A DNA stretch of 47,631 bases from IMG/VR virus record IMGVR_UViG_3300032285_005160, positions 1 to 47,631 of that record, one strand, 5' to 3'. Of this stretch, positions 2,209 through 10,331 are shown one piece after another (position 1 is the first letter of the stretch; every line of letters starts with the position of its first letter). Position numbers and translations under genes: made by a program. The notes below the pieces were generated by a model that had not been told where the DNA came from, searched no databases, and saw only the letters and a list, made by a program, of their open reading frames with translations. Origin of the DNA: a virus.

Positions 2209-3504
2209 ATGAAAGATCAAGATTTAACTGTTATGTTAGGGATCTTTGGATCTATGATGATGTTTAGTAGTCGAGATCAAGGGTCAAATGGACAAAGTGA
2301 TTATTATAAAACATTACTTTGGTTATTAAAATTAAAATCTGTTAAAAGAATCGTTTTAATTTCTTCTTCTGAAAAAGATATGAAGAAAAATAAAGAGCAT
2401 GTTCTTTCGATAGATCCAGAAAGAAAAATAGTATTAGCACAAGATTTTGGATATAAAGCTCCTATAGATCCAAAGGAAAGGTTTGATAAGCCAGAGCATT
2501 TCCAATTAGTTATGGATTCTTATGATAAGATTAATAATGGATTAAATAGTAAAGGAATTGAGATTGATCTTGGTTTTTTCTTTATGAGTCAAGGTTCTAA
2601 TTCCAGCGTTTGTATTCCTTATTATTTACCCAAGTTAAGAAATCCAAGTGAAATTACAATTCCAAGAGCTATGAATGTAAGATATACTGCTCCTCTTTGT
2701 ACATATATTTCTCGTTCTAAAGCTTTTCCATATTTTGTTATTTGTACTGATCCAAGACATTTTCGTCATCAAATATATCCAAGAGAGTTATGTAATCCAC
2801 CTGTAAGGTTTCTTTCTCAAGCGAATGCAACTCATGTTTGGAAAAGAATTGCTCAATTTGGTCCACCTCCAGTTCAAGTAATAGAGGATTGGGAAAGTAC
2901 TTACGATGGTATAGAAAAAATAGATTTAATTGATGTTAAATTAGATAATGATTTTAAAAGAGAAAAAACAATTAAATTTTCTGTAATATCAGCTCAATTA
3001 GATTCTGATAATTTACCACCAGAAGAAGATTTTAGGTATATGCAATTAAGAAAATGGGTTTTAGATCCAGACATTAATAAAGAGAATGCAATTTATGGAT
3101 ATTGGCATTCTTCAAGAGTTCAAGGAGATTCTCGTTTTAAAGGTTTTGTTAAAAGTACTGAAGATCTTTATAATATTATGAGTAATACTAGATATACAAT
3201 CGTAATGCCAACTAATTTTGGTTGGGCAACAAGTAAACCTTGGATTGTTGCTAGTAGGGGTACAATACCATTTATTCCAGATACTTATGATGTTCAAAAG
3301 AATCAACCTATACCATCATTTTTAAGAGTTAGTTCTCCACAAGAAATGTATCAAAAAATGGATCAATTAGAGGCTAATCCAGAAATGAGATATAAAATAT
3401 TAGAAGAACTATATAATGAAATGTCTGATGGTCCAGATGGATCATTTATGACAAAAGTTGTTAATGGTTATTTATCAGCATCTAAATGGCAGGTTAGAGT
3501 ATGA
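2209..3504 (+). CDS. Putative GT-B-like glycosyltransferase
   Basis: 431 residues, first gene of a coupled operon. The C-terminal third carries a pattern seen in GT-B and exostosin-type transferases: LYNIMSNTRYTIVMPTN, then a Gly/Trp loop and WIVASRGTIPFIPDTYD (about 332-363), where the sugar-nucleotide is normally bound. The N-terminal half has a Rossmann-like strand (RIVLISSSEKD). The C-terminal arrangement recurs in the gene at 5932-7041, suggesting a shared fold. No membrane segment, so cytoplasmic. The ATG overlaps the 2160-2206 hairpin's Shine-Dalgarno. It ends in a 4-bp ATGA overlap with the next glycosyltransferase. Donor and acceptor unknown. Confidence 0.55.
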   Translation: MKDQDLTVMLGIFGSMMMFSSRDQGSNGQSDYYKTLLWLLKLKSVKRIVLISSSEKDMKKNKEHVLSIDPERKIVLAQDFGYKAPIDPKERFDKPEHFQLVMDSYDKINNGLNSKGIEIDLGFFFMSQGSNSSVCIPYYLPKLRNPSEITIPRAMNVRYTAPLCTYISRSKAFPYFVICTDPRHFRHQIYPRELCNPPVRFLSQANATHVWKRIAQFGPPPVQVIEDWESTYDGIEKIDLIDVKLDNDFKREKTIKFSVISAQLDSDNLPPEEDFRYMQLRKWVLDPDINKENAIYGYWHSSRVQGDSRFKGFVKSTEDLYNIMSNTRYTIVMPTNFGWATSKPWIVASRGTIPFIPDTYDVQKNQPIPSFLRVSSPQEMYQKMDQLEANPEMRYKILEELYNEMSDGPDGSFMTKVVNGYLSASKWQVRV

Positions 3505-4460
3505 TTAATAAAGTTATAGTTACAACCACAATTAATCCTCCTACTGAGGCTTTAGTTAAATTTGCAGAAATGGACGGATGGGATTTAGTTATAGTTTGTG
3601 ATCTTAAAACTCCATTAGATGAACATCATGCTAAATTTAATGGAATGAATCATGTTAAGATTTTATCAGCTGTAACTCAAACTAATTTAAATCCTAGATT
3701 ATCTAGTGCTTTAGAGTGGAATAATATTCAAAGAAGAAATTTTGGTTTTTGGTATGTTTATCAGCATGAAAAGAGATATGATATTATTGCTACAGTAGAT
3801 GATGATAATATACCTAATAGCGATTGGGGAAAAGATCTTTTAATTGGAAAAAAGATTACAGTAGATAGATATGAAACTAATGATTCTTTTTTCGATCCTA
3901 TTTTCGTTTATACTGAAGGATTAGAAAGAACTTGGCATCGGGGATTTCCAGAACAATTATTAAATCAAAGAAAAATAAAATTTTTAGATCAAATGATTAC
4001 TACTCCTTTAGTTCAAGCTGATTTTTGGAGTGGTGATCCAGATATATCAGCAATATGTCGAATGAGTCTCTCTCCAAATTGGGATTATACTAAATATACT
4101 CAATATTATAGTGGTCCTTTTACTACAACGCAATTAACTCCATTTAATTCTCAAAATACTTTTTTACATAGAAGTCTTTTGCCTCATTATATGATGTTAT
4201 GTGATGTTGGTAGATATGATGATATATGGGGAGCTTATTTATTACAAAGAAATGTTGATTTAAAAAATAAAATAGTTTTTAATAAAATTACTGTTCAACA
4301 AGATAGAAATGAACATGATTTAGTTAAAGATTTAAAAAATGAAGTTTGGGGATATGAAAATACAATTAAATTAAAAAGTCAACAAATTTACGATTTATTA
4401 CCTCAAATTACTAAATTAAAATATGAAATCTATTATAGTGAGATGAAAAAATATGAATAA
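3501..4460 (+). CDS. STELLO/DUF288-like GT-A glycosyltransferase
   Basis: The N-terminal 110 residues match the STELLO/DUF288 pattern: a first strand VIVTTTINPPT, WDLVIVCDLKTP (27-38), the RRNFGFWYVYQH segment (78-89) and then ATVDDDNIP with the acidic triad at 100-102 that coordinates metal and UDP/GDP-sugar in GT-A enzymes. A second conserved stretch, LVQADFWSGDPD, follows near 172-183, again as in that family. About 319 residues, soluble. It starts in an ATGA overlap with the preceding transferase and overlaps the next gene by 8 bp, so all are made together. Acceptor unknown; candidates are phage DNA, a virion protein or a host glycan. Confidence 0.7.
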   Translation: MINKVIVTTTINPPTEALVKFAEMDGWDLVIVCDLKTPLDEHHAKFNGMNHVKILSAVTQTNLNPRLSSALEWNNIQRRNFGFWYVYQHEKRYDIIATVDDDNIPNSDWGKDLLIGKKITVDRYETNDSFFDPIFVYTEGLERTWHRGFPEQLLNQRKIKFLDQMITTPLVQADFWSGDPDISAICRMSLSPNWDYTKYTQYYSGPFTTTQLTPFNSQNTFLHRSLLPHYMMLCDVGRYDDIWGAYLLQRNVDLKNKIVFNKITVQQDRNEHDLVKDLKNEVWGYENTIKLKSQQIYDLLPQITKLKYEIYYSEMKKYE

Positions 4461-4788
4461 AGAAAAAGCAAAAATACTTTTAAGATTATATAAAGAAGAT
4501 TTAATATCAGCTGATGAATTTATGATATTATTTGAAGAAACTCCAAGTAATATAAATACCGGTGGTTATACTTATCCTTATACTATAACTACAAGCACTC
4601 CTGATCCAAATTTTCATATATATTATCCTAGTTCTTATAGTGGTAACATTAATTCTTCAAATGGTGTTGTTAATAATTTAATAAATACACCTAATTATTC
4701 AAATAAAGATCCAAGAACAACTATTAGCAATAATTTACATAAAGCTTTTTTTGATCCAGAGGCTCCTAAAATTGAAAAACAAAGATAA
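4453..4788 (+). CDS. Small protein with SHOCT-like N-terminal helix pair
   Basis: 111 residues. Residues 3-29 (KEKAKILLRLYKEDLISADE..) have the SHOCT-like spacing: a short helix, an LI turn, then acidic EF and a second helix. The rest is Ser/Thr/Asn/Tyr/Pro-rich and probably disordered (GGYTYPYTITTSTPDP). The same helix pair is found in the next small gene, so the two are paralogues in their structured part. SHOCT modules are usually oligomerisation or binding tags at protein ends, so an adaptor role for the flanking transferases is possible. Coupled to both neighbours by overlaps. Confidence 0.6.
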   Translation: MNKEKAKILLRLYKEDLISADEFMILFEETPSNINTGGYTYPYTITTSTPDPNFHIYYPSSYSGNINSSNGVVNNLINTPNYSNKDPRTTISNNLHKAFFDPEAPKIEKQR

Positions 4789-4930
4789 AAAAAAATTACT
4801 AATAAAACTACTGAAAGAAGAAAAAATTTCAGAAGATGAATTTTTATTGCTATTAGATGAAGAAGAAGATAAACATAATTCTAAAAAAAAGAATATAATA
4901 AAACATGAAGACGGTTTTTACGAAACATAA
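4772..4930 (+). CDS. 52-residue SHOCT-like paralogue with TTG start
   Basis: An open frame from TTG 4772 to TAA 4928-4930, 52 codons, preceded by AGAGG (4758-4762) at 9 nt spacing. No in-frame ATG exists near the start. Its product KKKLLIKLLKEEKISEDEF... aligns residue for residue with the N-terminal helix pair of the gene just upstream, which supports that it is translated. It overlaps that gene by 17 bp and is followed after 9 nt by the epimerase gene with its own AGGAG (4930-4934). It then ends in a Lys-rich, His-containing tail. Function unknown. Confidence 0.6.
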   Translation: MKNKDKKKLLIKLLKEEKISEDEFLLLLDEEEDKHNSKKKNIIKHEDGFYET

Positions 4931-4939
4931 GGAGAAGAA

Positions 4940-5932
4940 ATGAAAGTATCAGTTACAGGAGCAGGTGGATTTATAGGCGGACATCTCGTAAAGAGTTGTT
5001 TAGATTTAGGTTATGAAGTTAAAGCTTACGATAAAAAACCTAAAAATGAATGGTATCAAAGATTTAAAAAAGCTGATAATTATTACGGTAAAAAAGGAGA
5101 TATGACTAATCCTCAGATTACTGATTCAGTAACACAAGGGGTTAATATTATTTATAACCTAGCTGAGGACATGGGTGGAATAGGTTATTGTCATAATAAT
5201 CATTTAATGACTGGTTTATCTGGTAAGATTCATATTAATTTGATTGAAAGTATTTTAAAAAGTGAAACAAAGCCGCATGTATTTTATTCGTCTTCAGCCT
5301 GTGTTTATAACGATTCTCTTCAAAGTGATGATTCTCAAGATACGATGTTAAAAGAAAGTGACGCGTGGCCAGCACATCCAGATTTACTTTATGGTTTAAA
5401 TAAATTATATTGTGAAGAGCTTTATCGTTATCTAAATAAAGAATTTGGAATTCCAGTTACTATTGCTCGTTTTCATAATGTATATGGTCCTCATGGATCT
5501 TGGAAAGATGGAAGAGAAAAAGCTCCAGCCGCCTCGATAAGAAAAGTATTAGAATATGTTAGTATGAAAAGTGATCATATAGAAATATGGGGAGATGGAA
5601 AACAAAGAAGATCTTTTGTATATATAGACGATGTTATTATTGGAGTACATAAGTTAGTAAATAATAAGATTCAAGGTCCAGTTAATTTAGGTTCTAGTCA
5701 AGGAGTTACCATTCAATATTTACATGATTTAGTTATGAAAATATCTGATACGGAAATTATTGATTCAACTTATGAATATAAATTAAATGCTCCTCAAGGC
5801 GTTAAAAGTCGTAATAGTGATAATACATTAATTAAACAATTAATTGATTGGGAACCTTCTATTAAATTAGAAGATGGAATGAAAAAGACTTTTAAATGGA
5901 TTGAGAAAGAATTTAATAAGGAAAATAAGTAA
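4940..5932 (+). CDS. GDP-mannose 3,5-epimerase-like sugar-nucleotide enzyme
   Basis: An extended short-chain dehydrogenase of 330 residues. Visible are the NAD-binding GAGGFIGG (7-14), the GME-like NLAEDMGGIGY segment (73-83), a Ser-Ser-Ala-Cys catalytic stretch (117-121), the YxxxK pair Y151/K155 in YGLNK, RFHNVYGPHG (about 177-186) and REKAPAASIRK, followed by GDGKQRRSFVYIDD. This ordered set is characteristic of GDP-D-mannose 3,5-epimerase, which makes GDP-L-galactose or GDP-L-gulose. It would supply an unusual donor to the three transferases in the same operon. Strong AAGGAG at the start; stop overlaps the next ATG (TAATG). Confidence 0.8.
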   Translation: MKVSVTGAGGFIGGHLVKSCLDLGYEVKAYDKKPKNEWYQRFKKADNYYGKKGDMTNPQITDSVTQGVNIIYNLAEDMGGIGYCHNNHLMTGLSGKIHINLIESILKSETKPHVFYSSSACVYNDSLQSDDSQDTMLKESDAWPAHPDLLYGLNKLYCEELYRYLNKEFGIPVTIARFHNVYGPHGSWKDGREKAPAASIRKVLEYVSMKSDHIEIWGDGKQRRSFVYIDDVIIGVHKLVNNKIQGPVNLGSSQGVTIQYLHDLVMKISDTEIIDSTYEYKLNAPQGVKSRNSDNTLIKQLIDWEPSIKLEDGMKKTFKWIEKEFNKENK

Positions 5933-7041
5933 TGAAATTTGTAAAAAAAACAAGTTTTGATGATAATAAAAAAACAATAGTAGTTGGTTTTGGGGCATTT
6001 CTTAATTTAAGAAATGCTTCTAAACATTCATATATTACATATACATATTGGTTAACTAAATTTAAAGATCAATATAATTTAGCGATAATTACTGACTCAG
6101 AAACAGAAAAGCACGTTAGAAATCATGATACATATTTAAATGGTATTTTTGATGCATTCATTATGAATGGAGTAAAAAAATTTACTACTTGGGAAGAATT
6201 TATTTCTGAAACAAAAAAAGGTTATGATGAATTAAAAGAACAGATTAATCCGATTTCTTTTGTAGAAGTATTCGGTGCAATGAATTCTCTTTTTAAATAT
6301 TATAAAAAAAATGGTTTAGATAAAGCAATAAAACATAATAGATATATAGGATTTATTAGTTCTCAAAAAGTAATTCAAAAATTTCTAAATCACTATTCTT
6401 TTGTTTCTACTTTTAATATACCTTGGAATCATTTTTTACATGATCCACAAGAAAGTAATCATAAAGATGTTGAGTTATTAAATGGAATAGATTATCGTAG
6501 ATTTTATATTTATGATTCTAAGATATTTAAAACAAAAGGTCATTCATTTTTAAAGATTTATCATACTGATCACTTAGAAGCAAAAGAAAATAAAGCATAT
6601 GATTGGTGTATAGGTTTTACTTGTTTAACTCCTGATAGAAAACCAATCCAAAGATTATATGATAAATTTTATACGCTAGAAAATAGTAATATTTTTCTTC
6701 AGGATAGATATAAAGATATTCATACTAATGTTACTAAAGAACAGTATATAGATTATTTAAAAAAATCAAAATATACAGTTATTTTACCTTGTTATGATAA
6801 ACAAGCTTTTCCACCTAGATTTTTAGAAGGATTAGCTCGAGGTGTAATACCATATATTCATAAAGATGTTTATACTGAGGAAGGAATAGAAGATAAAAAC
6901 ATTTTAAATGATCTTTTGATTGATGATTCGTTTGATATATCTAATAAACCATGTGATGATATTTTTTTAAAAAAATTAATTGATAAATATGTAATTTCTT
7001 CGGAAGAAGAAATAAAATTATCTATAAAGGAAATATTATAA
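5932..7041 (+). CDS. Putative exostosin/GT-B-like glycosyltransferase
   Basis: 369 residues. The C-terminal part contains YLKKSKYTVILPCYD followed by FPPRFLEGLARGVIPYIHKD (about 281-315), the pattern by which GT-B/exostosin and GT10-type enzymes bind a nucleotide sugar, similar to the C-terminus of the gene at 2209-3504. The centre has an aromatic HTDHLEAKENKAYDW stretch. No signal or membrane segment. It overlaps the epimerase stop and the methyltransferase start by one base each (TAATG), so it is made in fixed ratio with both. Acceptor unknown; its position directly before a DNA methyltransferase is notable. Confidence 0.6.
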   Translation: MKFVKKTSFDDNKKTIVVGFGAFLNLRNASKHSYITYTYWLTKFKDQYNLAIITDSETEKHVRNHDTYLNGIFDAFIMNGVKKFTTWEEFISETKKGYDELKEQINPISFVEVFGAMNSLFKYYKKNGLDKAIKHNRYIGFISSQKVIQKFLNHYSFVSTFNIPWNHFLHDPQESNHKDVELLNGIDYRRFYIYDSKIFKTKGHSFLKIYHTDHLEAKENKAYDWCIGFTCLTPDRKPIQRLYDKFYTLENSNIFLQDRYKDIHTNVTKEQYIDYLKKSKYTVILPCYDKQAFPPRFLEGLARGVIPYIHKDVYTEEGIEDKNILNDLLIDDSFDISNKPCDDIFLKKLIDKYVISSEEEIKLSIKEIL

Positions 7042-8240
7042 TGAAACATGGCGTAATAATACCACTTATAGGTGGAATGGCAATTGGAGCATCTAGAGCT
7101 CTAGAAGAACAACCTAGTTGGGCTGTATCTTGGAATGATTTTGCCACTAATGAAGAAAATTTCAAAGAATATTATAAAGGAGTTCCTTTTAGAACTCTAG
7201 ATAATGAAAATATAGATAATATATCTTTAAAAGATGATATATTTAAAAATACAATGATTGTTAGTGCTGTACCTCCATGTGCTGGATTATCTCGTCTTAA
7301 TCCAACTATTGGTAATCATACTGCTAATGAAGAAAAAGATTATAAGTCTAATAAATGGATGTATATGGCTAGTTCTTTAATTTTAAGAGAAATTAGACCA
7401 AAAGTCATGATATTTGAAAATGCACCAGGACTTATGCAAAATTTTGGCAGATGGGTTCGAGAACAAGCAATCAATATAGGAAAAAAACATGGATACAGTA
7501 CTTCTTTTGTATATACAGGCTCAACCTTACATGGTTTACCTCAAAATCGTAAAAGATCTTTTGCATTTTTTTGGGATTCACAATATGCTCCTAACTTTAA
7601 TTGGTATAATAAACCACATTTATCTCCTGAAGAATATTTAAAAAAAGAATTTAAAAATTATAAAGATACTCCAGAACATAAAATATCAGTTGTTAAAGAA
7701 GAATTTAAAGATACTGTTTATTATGATTTCTATTCAGATAAATATGGTAAAGATTGGCGTGATGTTATGAAATCTAAATCTTCAAAAGAAAAAGTTATTT
7801 CTATGGAATACTTTTTATTTGAACAGAATTTACAAGATGAATTTATTGAAAAATATAAATCTAATCCTAAACATCAAAAAGAAGTAAAACATATAGAATG
7901 GGCTAAATATAAAAAATCAATCGGAAAAGGTTGGTGGAATTCTTCTTCTCATTTTTATTGTAATAATGAAGCTTATAATGCTATTACTATGAGAGCTCCT
8001 AATATGCTTCATCCAACTGAAGATCGTCATTTAACTATTCGTGAACATATGTATTTAATGGGTTTACCTCATGATTTTCATTTACAAAATACTTATTATA
8101 ATGCTATTTTTCAAAATGTTCCTGTTAATACTGCTGCTGATTGGACATCCTTTGCACGTGATTTCGTAGAAGGAAAAACAACTTCTAGTGGAAGCCAAGT
8201 TGTATATGGTGATAATTTTAAACAAAAACAGTGGACATAA
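7041..8240 (+). CDS. Cytosine-C5 DNA methyltransferase, divergent
   Basis: A 399-residue C5-MTase. Motif I is IIPLIGGMAIGASRALE; motif IV is SAVPPCAGLSRLN with nucleophile C80, differing from the usual PPCQGFS; motif VI is ENA at 126-128; motif VIII is LPQNRKRSFAFFW (Q168); motif IX/X is seen as HLTIREHMYLMGLPHDF and NVPVNTAADW near the end. It methylates C5 of cytosine from S-adenosylmethionine in a recognition site that cannot be read. As last gene of the sugar operon it could create the base on which further modification is built, or protect against restriction. No cognate restriction endonuclease gene is seen in the operon. Confidence 0.82.
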   Translation: MKHGVIIPLIGGMAIGASRALEEQPSWAVSWNDFATNEENFKEYYKGVPFRTLDNENIDNISLKDDIFKNTMIVSAVPPCAGLSRLNPTIGNHTANEEKDYKSNKWMYMASSLILREIRPKVMIFENAPGLMQNFGRWVREQAINIGKKHGYSTSFVYTGSTLHGLPQNRKRSFAFFWDSQYAPNFNWYNKPHLSPEEYLKKEFKNYKDTPEHKISVVKEEFKDTVYYDFYSDKYGKDWRDVMKSKSSKEKVISMEYFLFEQNLQDEFIEKYKSNPKHQKEVKHIEWAKYKKSIGKGWWNSSSHFYCNNEAYNAITMRAPNMLHPTEDRHLTIREHMYLMGLPHDFHLQNTYYNAIFQNVPVNTAADWTSFARDFVEGKTTSSGSQVVYGDNFKQKQWT

Positions 8241-8735: not shown

Positions 8736-9275
8736 ATGATAAAAAAAATAATTTTAATTTTAATTCTCTCTTGTTCAGTTTTATTTGGACAAGAGAAATA
8801 TTCTCGTGATAAATTTGGTACTGGATGGAATACTTTTAAAGGTTGTATTACTGTTCGCGAACATGTTTTGATTATTAATACTAAAGATATAATTACGATG
8901 GATTCTAAAAACTGTACTTTATTAAGTGGCGAGTGGTATTCTATTTGGGAAAATAAACATTTTACTGATCCGCGTGATATGGATATAGATCACACTGTTC
9001 CCTTAAAATGGGCTTATCAACATGGAGCTGATAAATGGACCCCTAAACAAAGAAATGATTATGCTAATAATTATGTTGATCAATATCATTTAGTTCCATT
9101 ATCTGCTCATAGTAATCGTTCTAAAAGTGACAAAGGTCCAGATGAGTGGATGCCTTCTTATAATCGTTGTTTATATATTAAAACTTTTACTAATATAGTA
9201 TCAAAATATAAATTAACTCTTAGTTCTTTAGAAAAAAATAATTTTAACAATATACAAAAAAAAGAGTGTAAATGA
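8736..9275 (+). CDS. Exported HNH nuclease (DUF1524/GmrSD-C-like)
   Basis: Starts with a signal peptide (MIKKIILILILSCSVLFGQ, 19 residues; a lipobox at C13 is possible but weak). The rest fits secreted HNH nucleases of the DUF1524 type: YSRDKFGTGW, TVREHVLI, then DMDIDHTVPLKWA with D85-H86 as the HNH core, WTPKQRNDYANN, and SAHSNRSKSDKGPDEWMPSYNRC with N127 as second metal ligand. Four cysteines after the signal (about 37, 60, 145, 178) could form disulfides, as expected outside the cytoplasm. A periplasmic nuclease made by a phage could cut incoming rival DNA or extracellular DNA. Weak ribosome-binding site; it follows the tagged gene by 7 nt. Confidence 0.78.
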   Translation: MIKKIILILILSCSVLFGQEKYSRDKFGTGWNTFKGCITVREHVLIINTKDIITMDSKNCTLLSGEWYSIWENKHFTDPRDMDIDHTVPLKWAYQHGADKWTPKQRNDYANNYVDQYHLVPLSAHSNRSKSDKGPDEWMPSYNRCLYIKTFTNIVSKYKLTLSSLEKNNFNNIQKKECK

Positions 9276-9598: not shown

Positions 9599-9967
9599 TT
9601 GGAAAAGGAAGAGTACTTTGCTGAAGGCGAGCACGTCATTGCTGATTTATGGGATTGTGAGAATAACATTCTTAATGATTCTGAAAAAATAAAAGAACTA
9701 TTAAAATTGGCCTCCATTGAAAGTGGAGCCACCCCACTTAAATATTTAGATCATAAATTTGAACCACAAGGATTAACTGGAATTTGGATTTTATCAGAAT
9801 CTCATTGTTCAGTTCATACATATCCAGAAATAGGATATGGTCATTTTGATATTTTTACTTGCGGAAATCAATGTAAACCAATTAACGGTATTTATTTATT
9901 AGTAAAAATATTAAAACCAAAAACTAAAAAAATAATAACAATGAGTAGAGGAAAAATTAATGAATAA
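9599..9967 (+). CDS. speD: S-adenosylmethionine decarboxylase-like proenzyme (pyruvoyl), first of two
   Basis: A 122-residue prokaryotic-type SpeD. GEHVIADLWDC (10-20) is the family's first strand. The self-cleavage site is LSESHCSVHTYPE with E67|S68, S68 becoming the pyruvoyl group; H73 and C88 (DIFTCG) are the other catalytic residues. SpeD removes CO2 from S-adenosylmethionine for spermidine synthesis; some homologues have been reported to act on arginine or ornithine. The open frame starts at TTG 9599; a better-placed ATG (9589, behind GGGGG) is out of frame, so the true start is uncertain. It overlaps the second speD-like gene by 8 bp. Confidence 0.85.
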   Translation: MEKEEYFAEGEHVIADLWDCENNILNDSEKIKELLKLASIESGATPLKYLDHKFEPQGLTGIWILSESHCSVHTYPEIGYGHFDIFTCGNQCKPINGIYLLVKILKPKTKKIITMSRGKINE

Positions 9968-10331
9968 TAGAGCTTGGGGATTGTCATGCGCTTTTGATTT
10001 TAACGGAGCGAATAAGCAAAAAATTAGTGATCCATCTACTGTAAAACAATTTATTAAAGAATTATGTGATGCAATTAAAATGAAAATGTATGGTGAAACT
10101 TGGATTGAAAAGTTTGCTTCTCATGATGAAAAATTATTTGGTATTACAGTTTTACAAGCGATAGAAACGAGCTCTATAACAGCTCATTTTGCTGAAAATA
10201 TAGGAGAAATATATTTAGATGTTTTTTCTTGTGCTGAGTATGATCCAGAAGTTGTTTTAAAATTTACTGAAAATTTCTTTTCTTGTAAAGGTAAAATAAT
10301 TAATAACTCTGAACGAGGTGTTTCTTTTTAA
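9960..10331 (+). CDS. Second, divergent SpeD-family pyruvoyl decarboxylase
   Basis: 123 residues. WGLSCAFDFNGANK and the C-terminal half align with SpeD: QAIETSSITAHFAENIGEIY, then LDVFSCAEYD. Against the upstream enzyme, the pyruvoyl serine is S71, the histidine H76 and the cysteine C91, all kept, but the residue before the serine is Thr70 instead of Glu. An active autoprocessing enzyme is therefore likely, with altered substrate choice possible: SpeD homologues turned into arginine or ornithine decarboxylases are known. Translationally coupled to the first gene (ATG within its last codons). Together the two could give a two-step polyamine route. Confidence 0.75.
   Translation: MNNRAWGLSCAFDFNGANKQKISDPSTVKQFIKELCDAIKMKMYGETWIEKFASHDEKLFGITVLQAIETSSITAHFAENIGEIYLDVFSCAEYDPEVVLKFTENFFSCKGKIINNSERGVSF

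What the first reader, a model, noticed from the sequence alone, without database searches (positions are those of the whole stretch)
2209..8240. Coupled operon of three glycosyltransferases, an epimerase and a C5 methyltransferase
Seven genes joined by 1-17 bp overlaps or gaps of 9 nt end in a cytosine-C5 methyltransferase. The tight coupling of a sugar-nucleotide enzyme, three transferases and a DNA methyltransferase suggests one pathway. A possible pathway is sugar modification built on cytosine; in other phages C5-methylation followed by oxidation and glycosylation is known. No dioxygenase is in the window. A surface-glycan role is the alternative.
Basis: partly seen in the sequence, partly recalled or inferred. 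Interest (0 to 1): 0.75.

Follow-up and report, generated by a model that had tools for sequence, protein, structure and literature searches.

The report
Phage operon for sugar-decorated 5-hydroxymethylcytosine
This set of virus genes most likely puts an unusual sugar on the virus's own hydroxymethylated cytosines, and its last gene is a 'DNA methyltransferase' of a phage clade whose usual cofactor site is rebuilt and which almost always travels with enzymes that make and glycosylate hydroxymethylcytosine.

Summary
The seven coupled ORFs are real. Two of the three 'glycosyltransferases' stand. GTa (2209-3504) models best on T4 beta-glucosyltransferase; GTc (5932-7041) is GT47-like. The third (3501-4460) is a GT75 NDP-pyranose mutase of the MtdL type, and the 'epimerase' is a GDP-mannose 3,5-epimerase. 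Together these two predict a GDP-L-galactofuranose donor. The C5-MTase-fold protein belongs to a phage clade linked to 5-hydroxymethylcytosine (hmC) DNA. Searching independently with GTa, 75 of 77 new viral loci carry the MTase, 51 of them within 17 bp. With another hmC-DNA glycosyltransferase family as query, 21 of 24 do. Every aligned thymidylate-synthase homologue in these loci has the Asp of dCMP hydroxymethylase, except a second, Asn-type copy (true ThyA) in two records that also carry an Asp-type one. In Pseudoalteromonas phage XG4 a T4 gp42-like dCMP hydroxymethylase opens the same operon. No TET was found. So DNA modification is well supported, but hmC comes from dCMP hydroxymethylase, not 5mC oxidation. 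The clade keeps catalytic Cys/Glu/Arg but has lost the AdoMet motif FxGxGG (0 of 86) for PL[I/V]GG, suggesting a SAM-independent or re-purposed role on hmC (inferred). A surface-glycan role is not excluded for the donor genes.

The parts
2209..3504 (+). GTa: GT-B glycosyltransferase, T4 BGT-like fold; predicted DNA-hmC glycosyltransferase
   Evidence: AF2 model pLDDT 79.9; best PDB fold match T4 beta-glucosyltransferase 1qkj, E 2.5e-6; 75 of 77 independently found homologue loci carry the MTase
3501..4460 (+). GT75 NDP-pyranose mutase-like protein (MtdL type), predicted NDP-furanose maker
   Evidence: phmmer to MtdL structures 7yua/7xpr E 1.1e-16; DDD, Arg159, Asp195, Ser228, Gln229, Arg257, Asp260 equivalents conserved (residues from PMC9937993)
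4453..4788 (+). small protein of unknown function (111 aa)
   Evidence: conserved N-terminus in G001/G002; no family match
4751..4930 (+). small ORF (59 aa), resembles the N-terminus of the preceding ORF by eye
4940..5932 (+). GDP-mannose 3,5-epimerase-like enzyme (sugar-donor supply)
   Evidence: phmmer to 2c59 E 2.5e-74, next family (UDP-glucuronate decarboxylase) E 4e-25
5932..7041 (+). GTc: GT47/GT-B-like glycosyltransferase
   Evidence: weak Exostosin_GT47 match of homologues; homologue sits between GTa and MTase in phage XG4; AF2 model poor
7041..8240 (+). C5-MTase-fold protein of the PL[I/V]GG clade; catalytic C80, E126, R170, R172; predicted to act on hmC DNA
   Evidence: PF00145 7.5e-22; clade alignment; motif control; linkage to hmC genes

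Best explanation
The operon is a phage DNA-hypermodification cassette built on 5-hydroxymethylcytosine. Proposed pathway: (1) an Asp-type thymidylate-synthase homologue (dCMP hydroxymethylase, elsewhere in the genome) makes 5hm-dCMP, which replication puts into DNA (inferred from relatives; the window is a fragment). (2) The 4940-5932 epimerase turns GDP-mannose into GDP-L-galactose (or gulose), and the 3501-4460 mutase into the furanose form (inferred from homology). (3) GTa, perhaps with GTc, transfers the sugar(s) to hmC in DNA (fold and context; not assayed). (4) The C5-MTase-fold protein works on the same base. It keeps the Cys/Glu/Arg chemistry of C5 MTases but has a rebuilt AdoMet site, so it most likely uses covalent catalysis on hmC-bearing cytosine (installing, exchanging or removing a 5-substituent, or priming the base for GTa) rather than plain 5mC formation. 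Steps 1-3 about 0.75 jointly as DNA modification; the specific L-galactofuranose donor about 0.35; step 4 chemistry about 0.4.
For: XG4 operon: T4 gp42-like dCMP hydroxymethylase (E 5.6e-62, Asp179 kept), HAD, NTase-kinase, GTa, GTc, MTase in a row. Enterococcus phage Planchet: pyrimidine hydroxymethylase, NTase-kinase, GTa homologue. G001 has its own Asp-type HMase (best PDB hit MilA CMP hydroxymethylase) plus ThyX, DNMK-like kinase, dUTPase and dCMP deaminase. All TS homologues aligned in MTase or GTa loci are Asp-type, apart from an Asn-type second copy in L060's record and in G006, each beside an Asp-type one. GTa best fold = T4 BGT. Where GTa is absent, T4 Agt (PF11440, E 3.1e-63) or T2 beta-glucosyl-hmC-alpha-GT/TAGT (PF20691) sits directly before the MTase. 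GTa as query: 75/77 loci have the MTase; TAGT as query: 21/24. Dcm control: 28/28 DLFAGIGG, no TS nearby; clade 0/86 FxGxG, 83/86 PL[I/V]GG.
Against: No HMase in the window or G002 (fragments), and in G001 it lies about 75 kb from the operon. T4 glucosylates hmC without any C5-MTase, so the role of this one is not forced by the pathway. Loss of the AdoMet motif is sequence inference; AdoMet binding is not excluded. The GME and GT75 genes also occur in cyanophage heptose/GT clusters with no known DNA role. The mutase lacks the MtdL Asp87 and Mn ligand His287 equivalents (Ile, Gln). GTc model was too poor to test. I know of no nucleoside data for any of the phages that carry this MTase clade.
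Confidence: 0.72

Rival explanations
1. DNA hypermodification as above, but the MTase is an ordinary AdoMet-dependent C5-MTase with a drifted motif I that methylates cytosines escaping hydroxymethylation, protecting them from host or phage nucleases.
For: Fold and catalytic residues intact; the AdoMet adenine-binding Asp region is partly conserved; PMC8056088 suggests C5-MTases could protect T4-like phages that lack modified bases from DenA.
Against: FxGxGG lost in 86 of 86 members, motif II acid not conserved; near-obligate pairing with an hmC-DNA glycosyltransferase.
Confidence: 0.3
2. 5mC-first route: the C5-MTase makes 5mC, a dioxygenase outside the window oxidises it to hmC, then GTs glycosylate it.
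For: Known for MT/TET phages (own knowledge); PF20691 'TET-associated GT' occurs next to the clade in some lineages.
Against: No Tet_JBP match in the 8 and 29 records searched, including the 290-kb G001 (control weak); Asp-type HMases are there instead.
Confidence: 0.07
3. Surface or virion glycan pathway: GME, GT75 and GTs build a polysaccharide or lipid/capsid sugar; the MTase is a bystander.
For: Cyanophages S-T4 and Sf-CH5 carry GME and GT75 homologues in a heptose/GT cluster without hmC genes in the stretch read; G001 has rmlA/rmlB/rmlC-like genes nearby.
Against: GTa folds like T4 BGT and occurs with the MTase in 75/77 loci, mostly abutting.
Confidence: 0.12
4. The MTase is another CmoX (carboxy-SAM cytosine carboxymethyltransferase).
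For: Phage C5-MTase relative used as a hypermodification handle (PMC12783734).
Against: CmoX needs Arg350 at the HhaI Asn304 position; the clade has Asn (27/28); SPPC motif absent in the window protein (VPPC).
Confidence: 0.03

Closest known systems
T4/T2/RB69-type hmC glycosylation (dCMP hydroxymethylase gp42 plus BGT/AGT/beta-alpha-GT or arabinosyl genes)
   Same: Asp-type HMase, DNA-hmC glycosyltransferases, HAD and NTase-kinase sugar genes like RB69 p051-p053 in relatives
   Different: Adds a C5-MTase-fold protein coupled to the GT; GTa unrelated in sequence to RB69 ORF003c; window lineage uses GME + GT75 donor genes
Phage MT/TET/GT hypermodification clusters
   Same: C5-MTase homologue plus cytosine-directed GTs; PF20691 GT in some lineages
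   Different: No TET found; hmC from dCMP hydroxymethylase; MTase motif I rebuilt
CmoX/CmoA/CmoY (5-carboxymethylcytosine, Synechococcus phage S-B43; PMC12783734)
   Same: C5-MTase fold re-purposed in phage DNA hypermodification
   Different: No Arg350 equivalent, different motif I, GT rather than amide ligase partner; CmoA was not searched for
A201A antibiotic sugar pathway (MtdL GDP-L-galactose mutase; PMC9937993)
   Same: GT75 mutase acting on GDP-L-galactose; a GME supplies that sugar (own knowledge)
   Different: In a phage operon with DNA-modification genes; two MtdL active-site residues differ

Membership tests
dCMP-hydroxymethylase-based hmC DNA modification | Asp-type TS homologue with catalytic Cys | tested here: met
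   In relatives (G001, XG4, tens of viral contigs), not in the window itself, which is a fragment
dCMP-hydroxymethylase-based hmC DNA modification | DNA-hmC glycosyltransferase | tested here: inconclusive
   GTa best fold T4 BGT, no detectable sequence similarity to PDB chains; activity not testable
dCMP-hydroxymethylase-based hmC DNA modification | hmC nucleoside in DNA | not testable with these tools
   needs LC-MS
Canonical AdoMet-dependent C5-MTase | PC, EN(V), QxRxR catalytic motifs | tested here: met
   Cys 28/28, Glu 28/28, Arg 28/28
Canonical AdoMet-dependent C5-MTase | AdoMet motif I FxGxGG | tested here: not met
   0 of 86 clade members; 28 of 28 Dcm-type controls
MT/TET/GT cluster | TET/JBP dioxygenase | tested here: inconclusive
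   no match, but the control of the search was weak
CmoX | Arg at the HhaI Asn304 position and SPPC | tested here: not met
   Asn in 27/28; window VPPC
GT75 NDP-pyranose mutase | autoglycosylated Arg, catalytic Asps, DDD | tested here: met
   R147, D181, D241, D100-D102 aligned to MtdL R159, D195, D260, D109-D111
GT75 NDP-pyranose mutase | MtdL Asp87 and Mn ligand His287 | tested here: not met
   Ile76 and Gln267 in the window protein
GDP-mannose 3,5-epimerase | full-length similarity with SSAC, YGLxK and REKAPAA blocks | tested here: met
   E 2.5e-74 to 2c59

The most novel reading that the evidence does not exclude
A widespread phage clade of C5-methyltransferase-fold proteins has given up AdoMet methylation and acts on 5-hydroxymethylcytosine in DNA by covalent catalysis (nucleophile coupling, exchange or removal of the 5-substituent), as the shared core next to interchangeable hmC glycosyltransferases; in the window lineage the final sugar would be L-galactofuranose.
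Probability: 0.35. Interest if true: 0.88.

Novelty: new variant of a known kind. Interest (0 to 1): 0.74.

Why it matters
If right, a C5-MTase fold has a second natural life on hmC, in a module found in well over a hundred viral contigs here and in one cultured phage (Pseudoalteromonas phage XG4), so it can be tested directly. It would add a new step to phage cytosine hypermodification and possibly a furanose sugar on DNA, with uses in restriction evasion studies and DNA labelling enzymes.

Tried and rejected
Decarboxylated-AdoMet donor from the two SpeD-like genes downstream (9599-10331): SpeD is confined to the window's close relatives plus one weak match to the second copy, so rejected as the clade's cofactor source. 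CmoX membership: residue test failed. Homology of GTa, GTc or the MTase to RB69 ORF003c: none. U32-type hydroxylation of cytosine as in RB69 p050: no homologue in the MTase loci fetched by then. GTc structure: pLDDT 52, not used for fold search. Dcm as control family is narrow. The L048 GTa/MTase chimeric ORF was not counted as a fusion (possible assembly artefact). The library search found no paper describing this pairing, but subscription papers are mostly missing. Family 24 was first taken for a kinase; it matches only the helical domain of 5-hmdU kinases, and no P-loop was seen by eye in the two members read.

Full report
Observation. The window is a 47.6-kb viral fragment. The gene set is conserved in a 290-kb contig (G001) and partly in a 77-kb contig (G002).

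What the genes are. The last gene is a PF00145 C5-MTase homologue. The epimerase matches GDP-mannose 3,5-epimerase at E 2.5e-74, far above other epimerases. The 3501-4460 gene matches the GT75 NDP-pyranose mutase MtdL at E 1.1e-16, with the nucleophilic Arg, the general-base Asp and the DDD motif aligned; MtdL makes GDP-L-galactofuranose (PMC9937993). Two MtdL residues (Asp87, His287) are not kept. So GDP-mannose -> GDP-L-galactose -> furanose is the natural donor hypothesis (inference). GTa has almost no family signal, but its AlphaFold model (pLDDT 79.9) matches T4 beta-glucosyltransferase best among PDB chains (E 2.5e-6, probability 1.00, target TM 0.5-0.6; other GT-B enzymes follow closely). 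GTc homologues show weak GT47 similarity.

Context elsewhere. Pseudoalteromonas phage XG4 has, in one run, a T4 gp42-like dCMP hydroxymethylase (E 5.6e-62, Asp179 kept), a HAD phosphatase, a nucleotidyltransferase-kinase, GTa, GTc and the MTase. Enterococcus phage Planchet has pyrimidine hydroxymethylase, HAD, nucleotidyltransferase-kinase and a GTa homologue, without the MTase. G001 carries its own Asp-type TS homologue, closest to MilA CMP hydroxymethylase in the PDB, beside a separate ThyX, a DNMK-like kinase, dUTPase and dCMP deaminase; it lies about 75 kb from the operon.

Linkage at scale. A profile scan for the MTase gave 80 viral loci. Among 33 MTase clusters at 70% identity, 18 have a TS homologue in the fetched stretch, 13 GTa, 11 the nucleotidyltransferase-kinase and 11 the HAD; where GTa is missing, T4-type AGT (8 clusters, four of which look like one group with broken frames) or PF20691 GTs similar to T2 beta-glucosyl-hmC-alpha-GT occur, often touching the MTase. 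Two unbiased checks used the glycosyltransferases as queries: PF20691-type query, 21 of 24 new loci have the MTase, and TS homologues read there were Cys/Asp in 17 of 17; GTa query, 75 of 77 new loci have the MTase, 51 within 17 bp or overlapping, and 53 of 54 TS homologues show Asp, the other being truncated at that column. The Asn-type (true ThyA) copies seen (in L060's record and in G006) accompany an Asp-type one.

The MTase clade. Across 28 representatives the catalytic Cys, Glu and Arg are invariant, while FxGxGG is replaced by (I/V)PL(I/V)GG, the motif II acid is not conserved, and motif X reads QNVP. FxGxG: 0 of 86 long members against DLFAGIGG in 28 of 28 Dcm-type controls, which also show no TS nearby. 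A genome-collection scan found one relative, on a contig binned with a Microbacteriaceae MAG and encoding a cyanophage-like MTase, so the clade looks phage-specific. It is not CmoX: the Arg350 position is Asn (PMC12783734).

Mechanism. dCMP hydroxymethylase makes hmC at the nucleotide level; GTs decorate it in DNA. A C5-MTase is then unneeded for hmC, and T4 lacks one (own knowledge), so its near-obligate presence here is the puzzle. The conserved Cys/Glu/Arg with a rebuilt cofactor pocket fits covalent catalysis on hmC. C5 MTases are known to act on hmC without AdoMet in vitro (dehydroxymethylation, thiol coupling; own knowledge, the papers were not held in the library). This step is inferred and carries about 0.4.

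Limits. No HMase in the window fragment; TET absence rests on a search with a weak control; donor genes also appear in cyanophage sugar clusters with no known DNA link; no chemistry measured. Neighbouring counts come from gene calling by script and BLAST/HMM cut-offs, and related contigs are not independent.

Noticed in passing
L123:2493-3662 (phage RB69 p050): RB69 p050, beside its dCMP-hydroxymethylase-like gene, is a Peptidase_U32 homologue (PF01136). U32 protein TrhP makes 5-hydroxyuridine in tRNA, so p050 may explain the C5-O (hydroxy, not hydroxymethyl) sugar linkage reported for arabinosyl-hydroxy-cytosine and for phage Thanatos, whose authors had no hypothesis for it (PMC12838424); whether Thanatos has such a gene was not checked.
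   Followed up: partly
L084:4735-8068, L087, L040:4500-6963, L046:6558-7601, L034:5870-7015: Some MTase lineages carry a protein with the helical domain of 5-hmdU DNA kinases (PF18723), and L084 also a myo-inositol-1-phosphate synthase (similar-looking genes in L040 and L087), suggesting other, perhaps inositol-based, cytosine decorations.
   Followed up: partly
9599-10331: Two adjacent genes, an AdoMet decarboxylase and a second protein that looks SpeD-like, downstream of the operon, conserved in G001 and G002.
   Followed up: partly
8736-9275: HNH-type nuclease with a GmrSD_C/GH-E match and a likely signal peptide right after the operon region, conserved in both relatives.
   Followed up: no
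L032:9968-12404 and L043:5951-8321: Tandem duplicated MTase-clade genes.
   Followed up: no
L026:5114-5956 (cyanophage S-TIM54): Gene annotated ThyA next to an MTase-clade gene has the dCMP-type Asp, so this cyanophage may have modified cytosine.
   Followed up: partly
313-1050: HAD 5'-nucleotidase-like gene (PF06941) upstream, with a homologue at the same place in G001.
   Followed up: no
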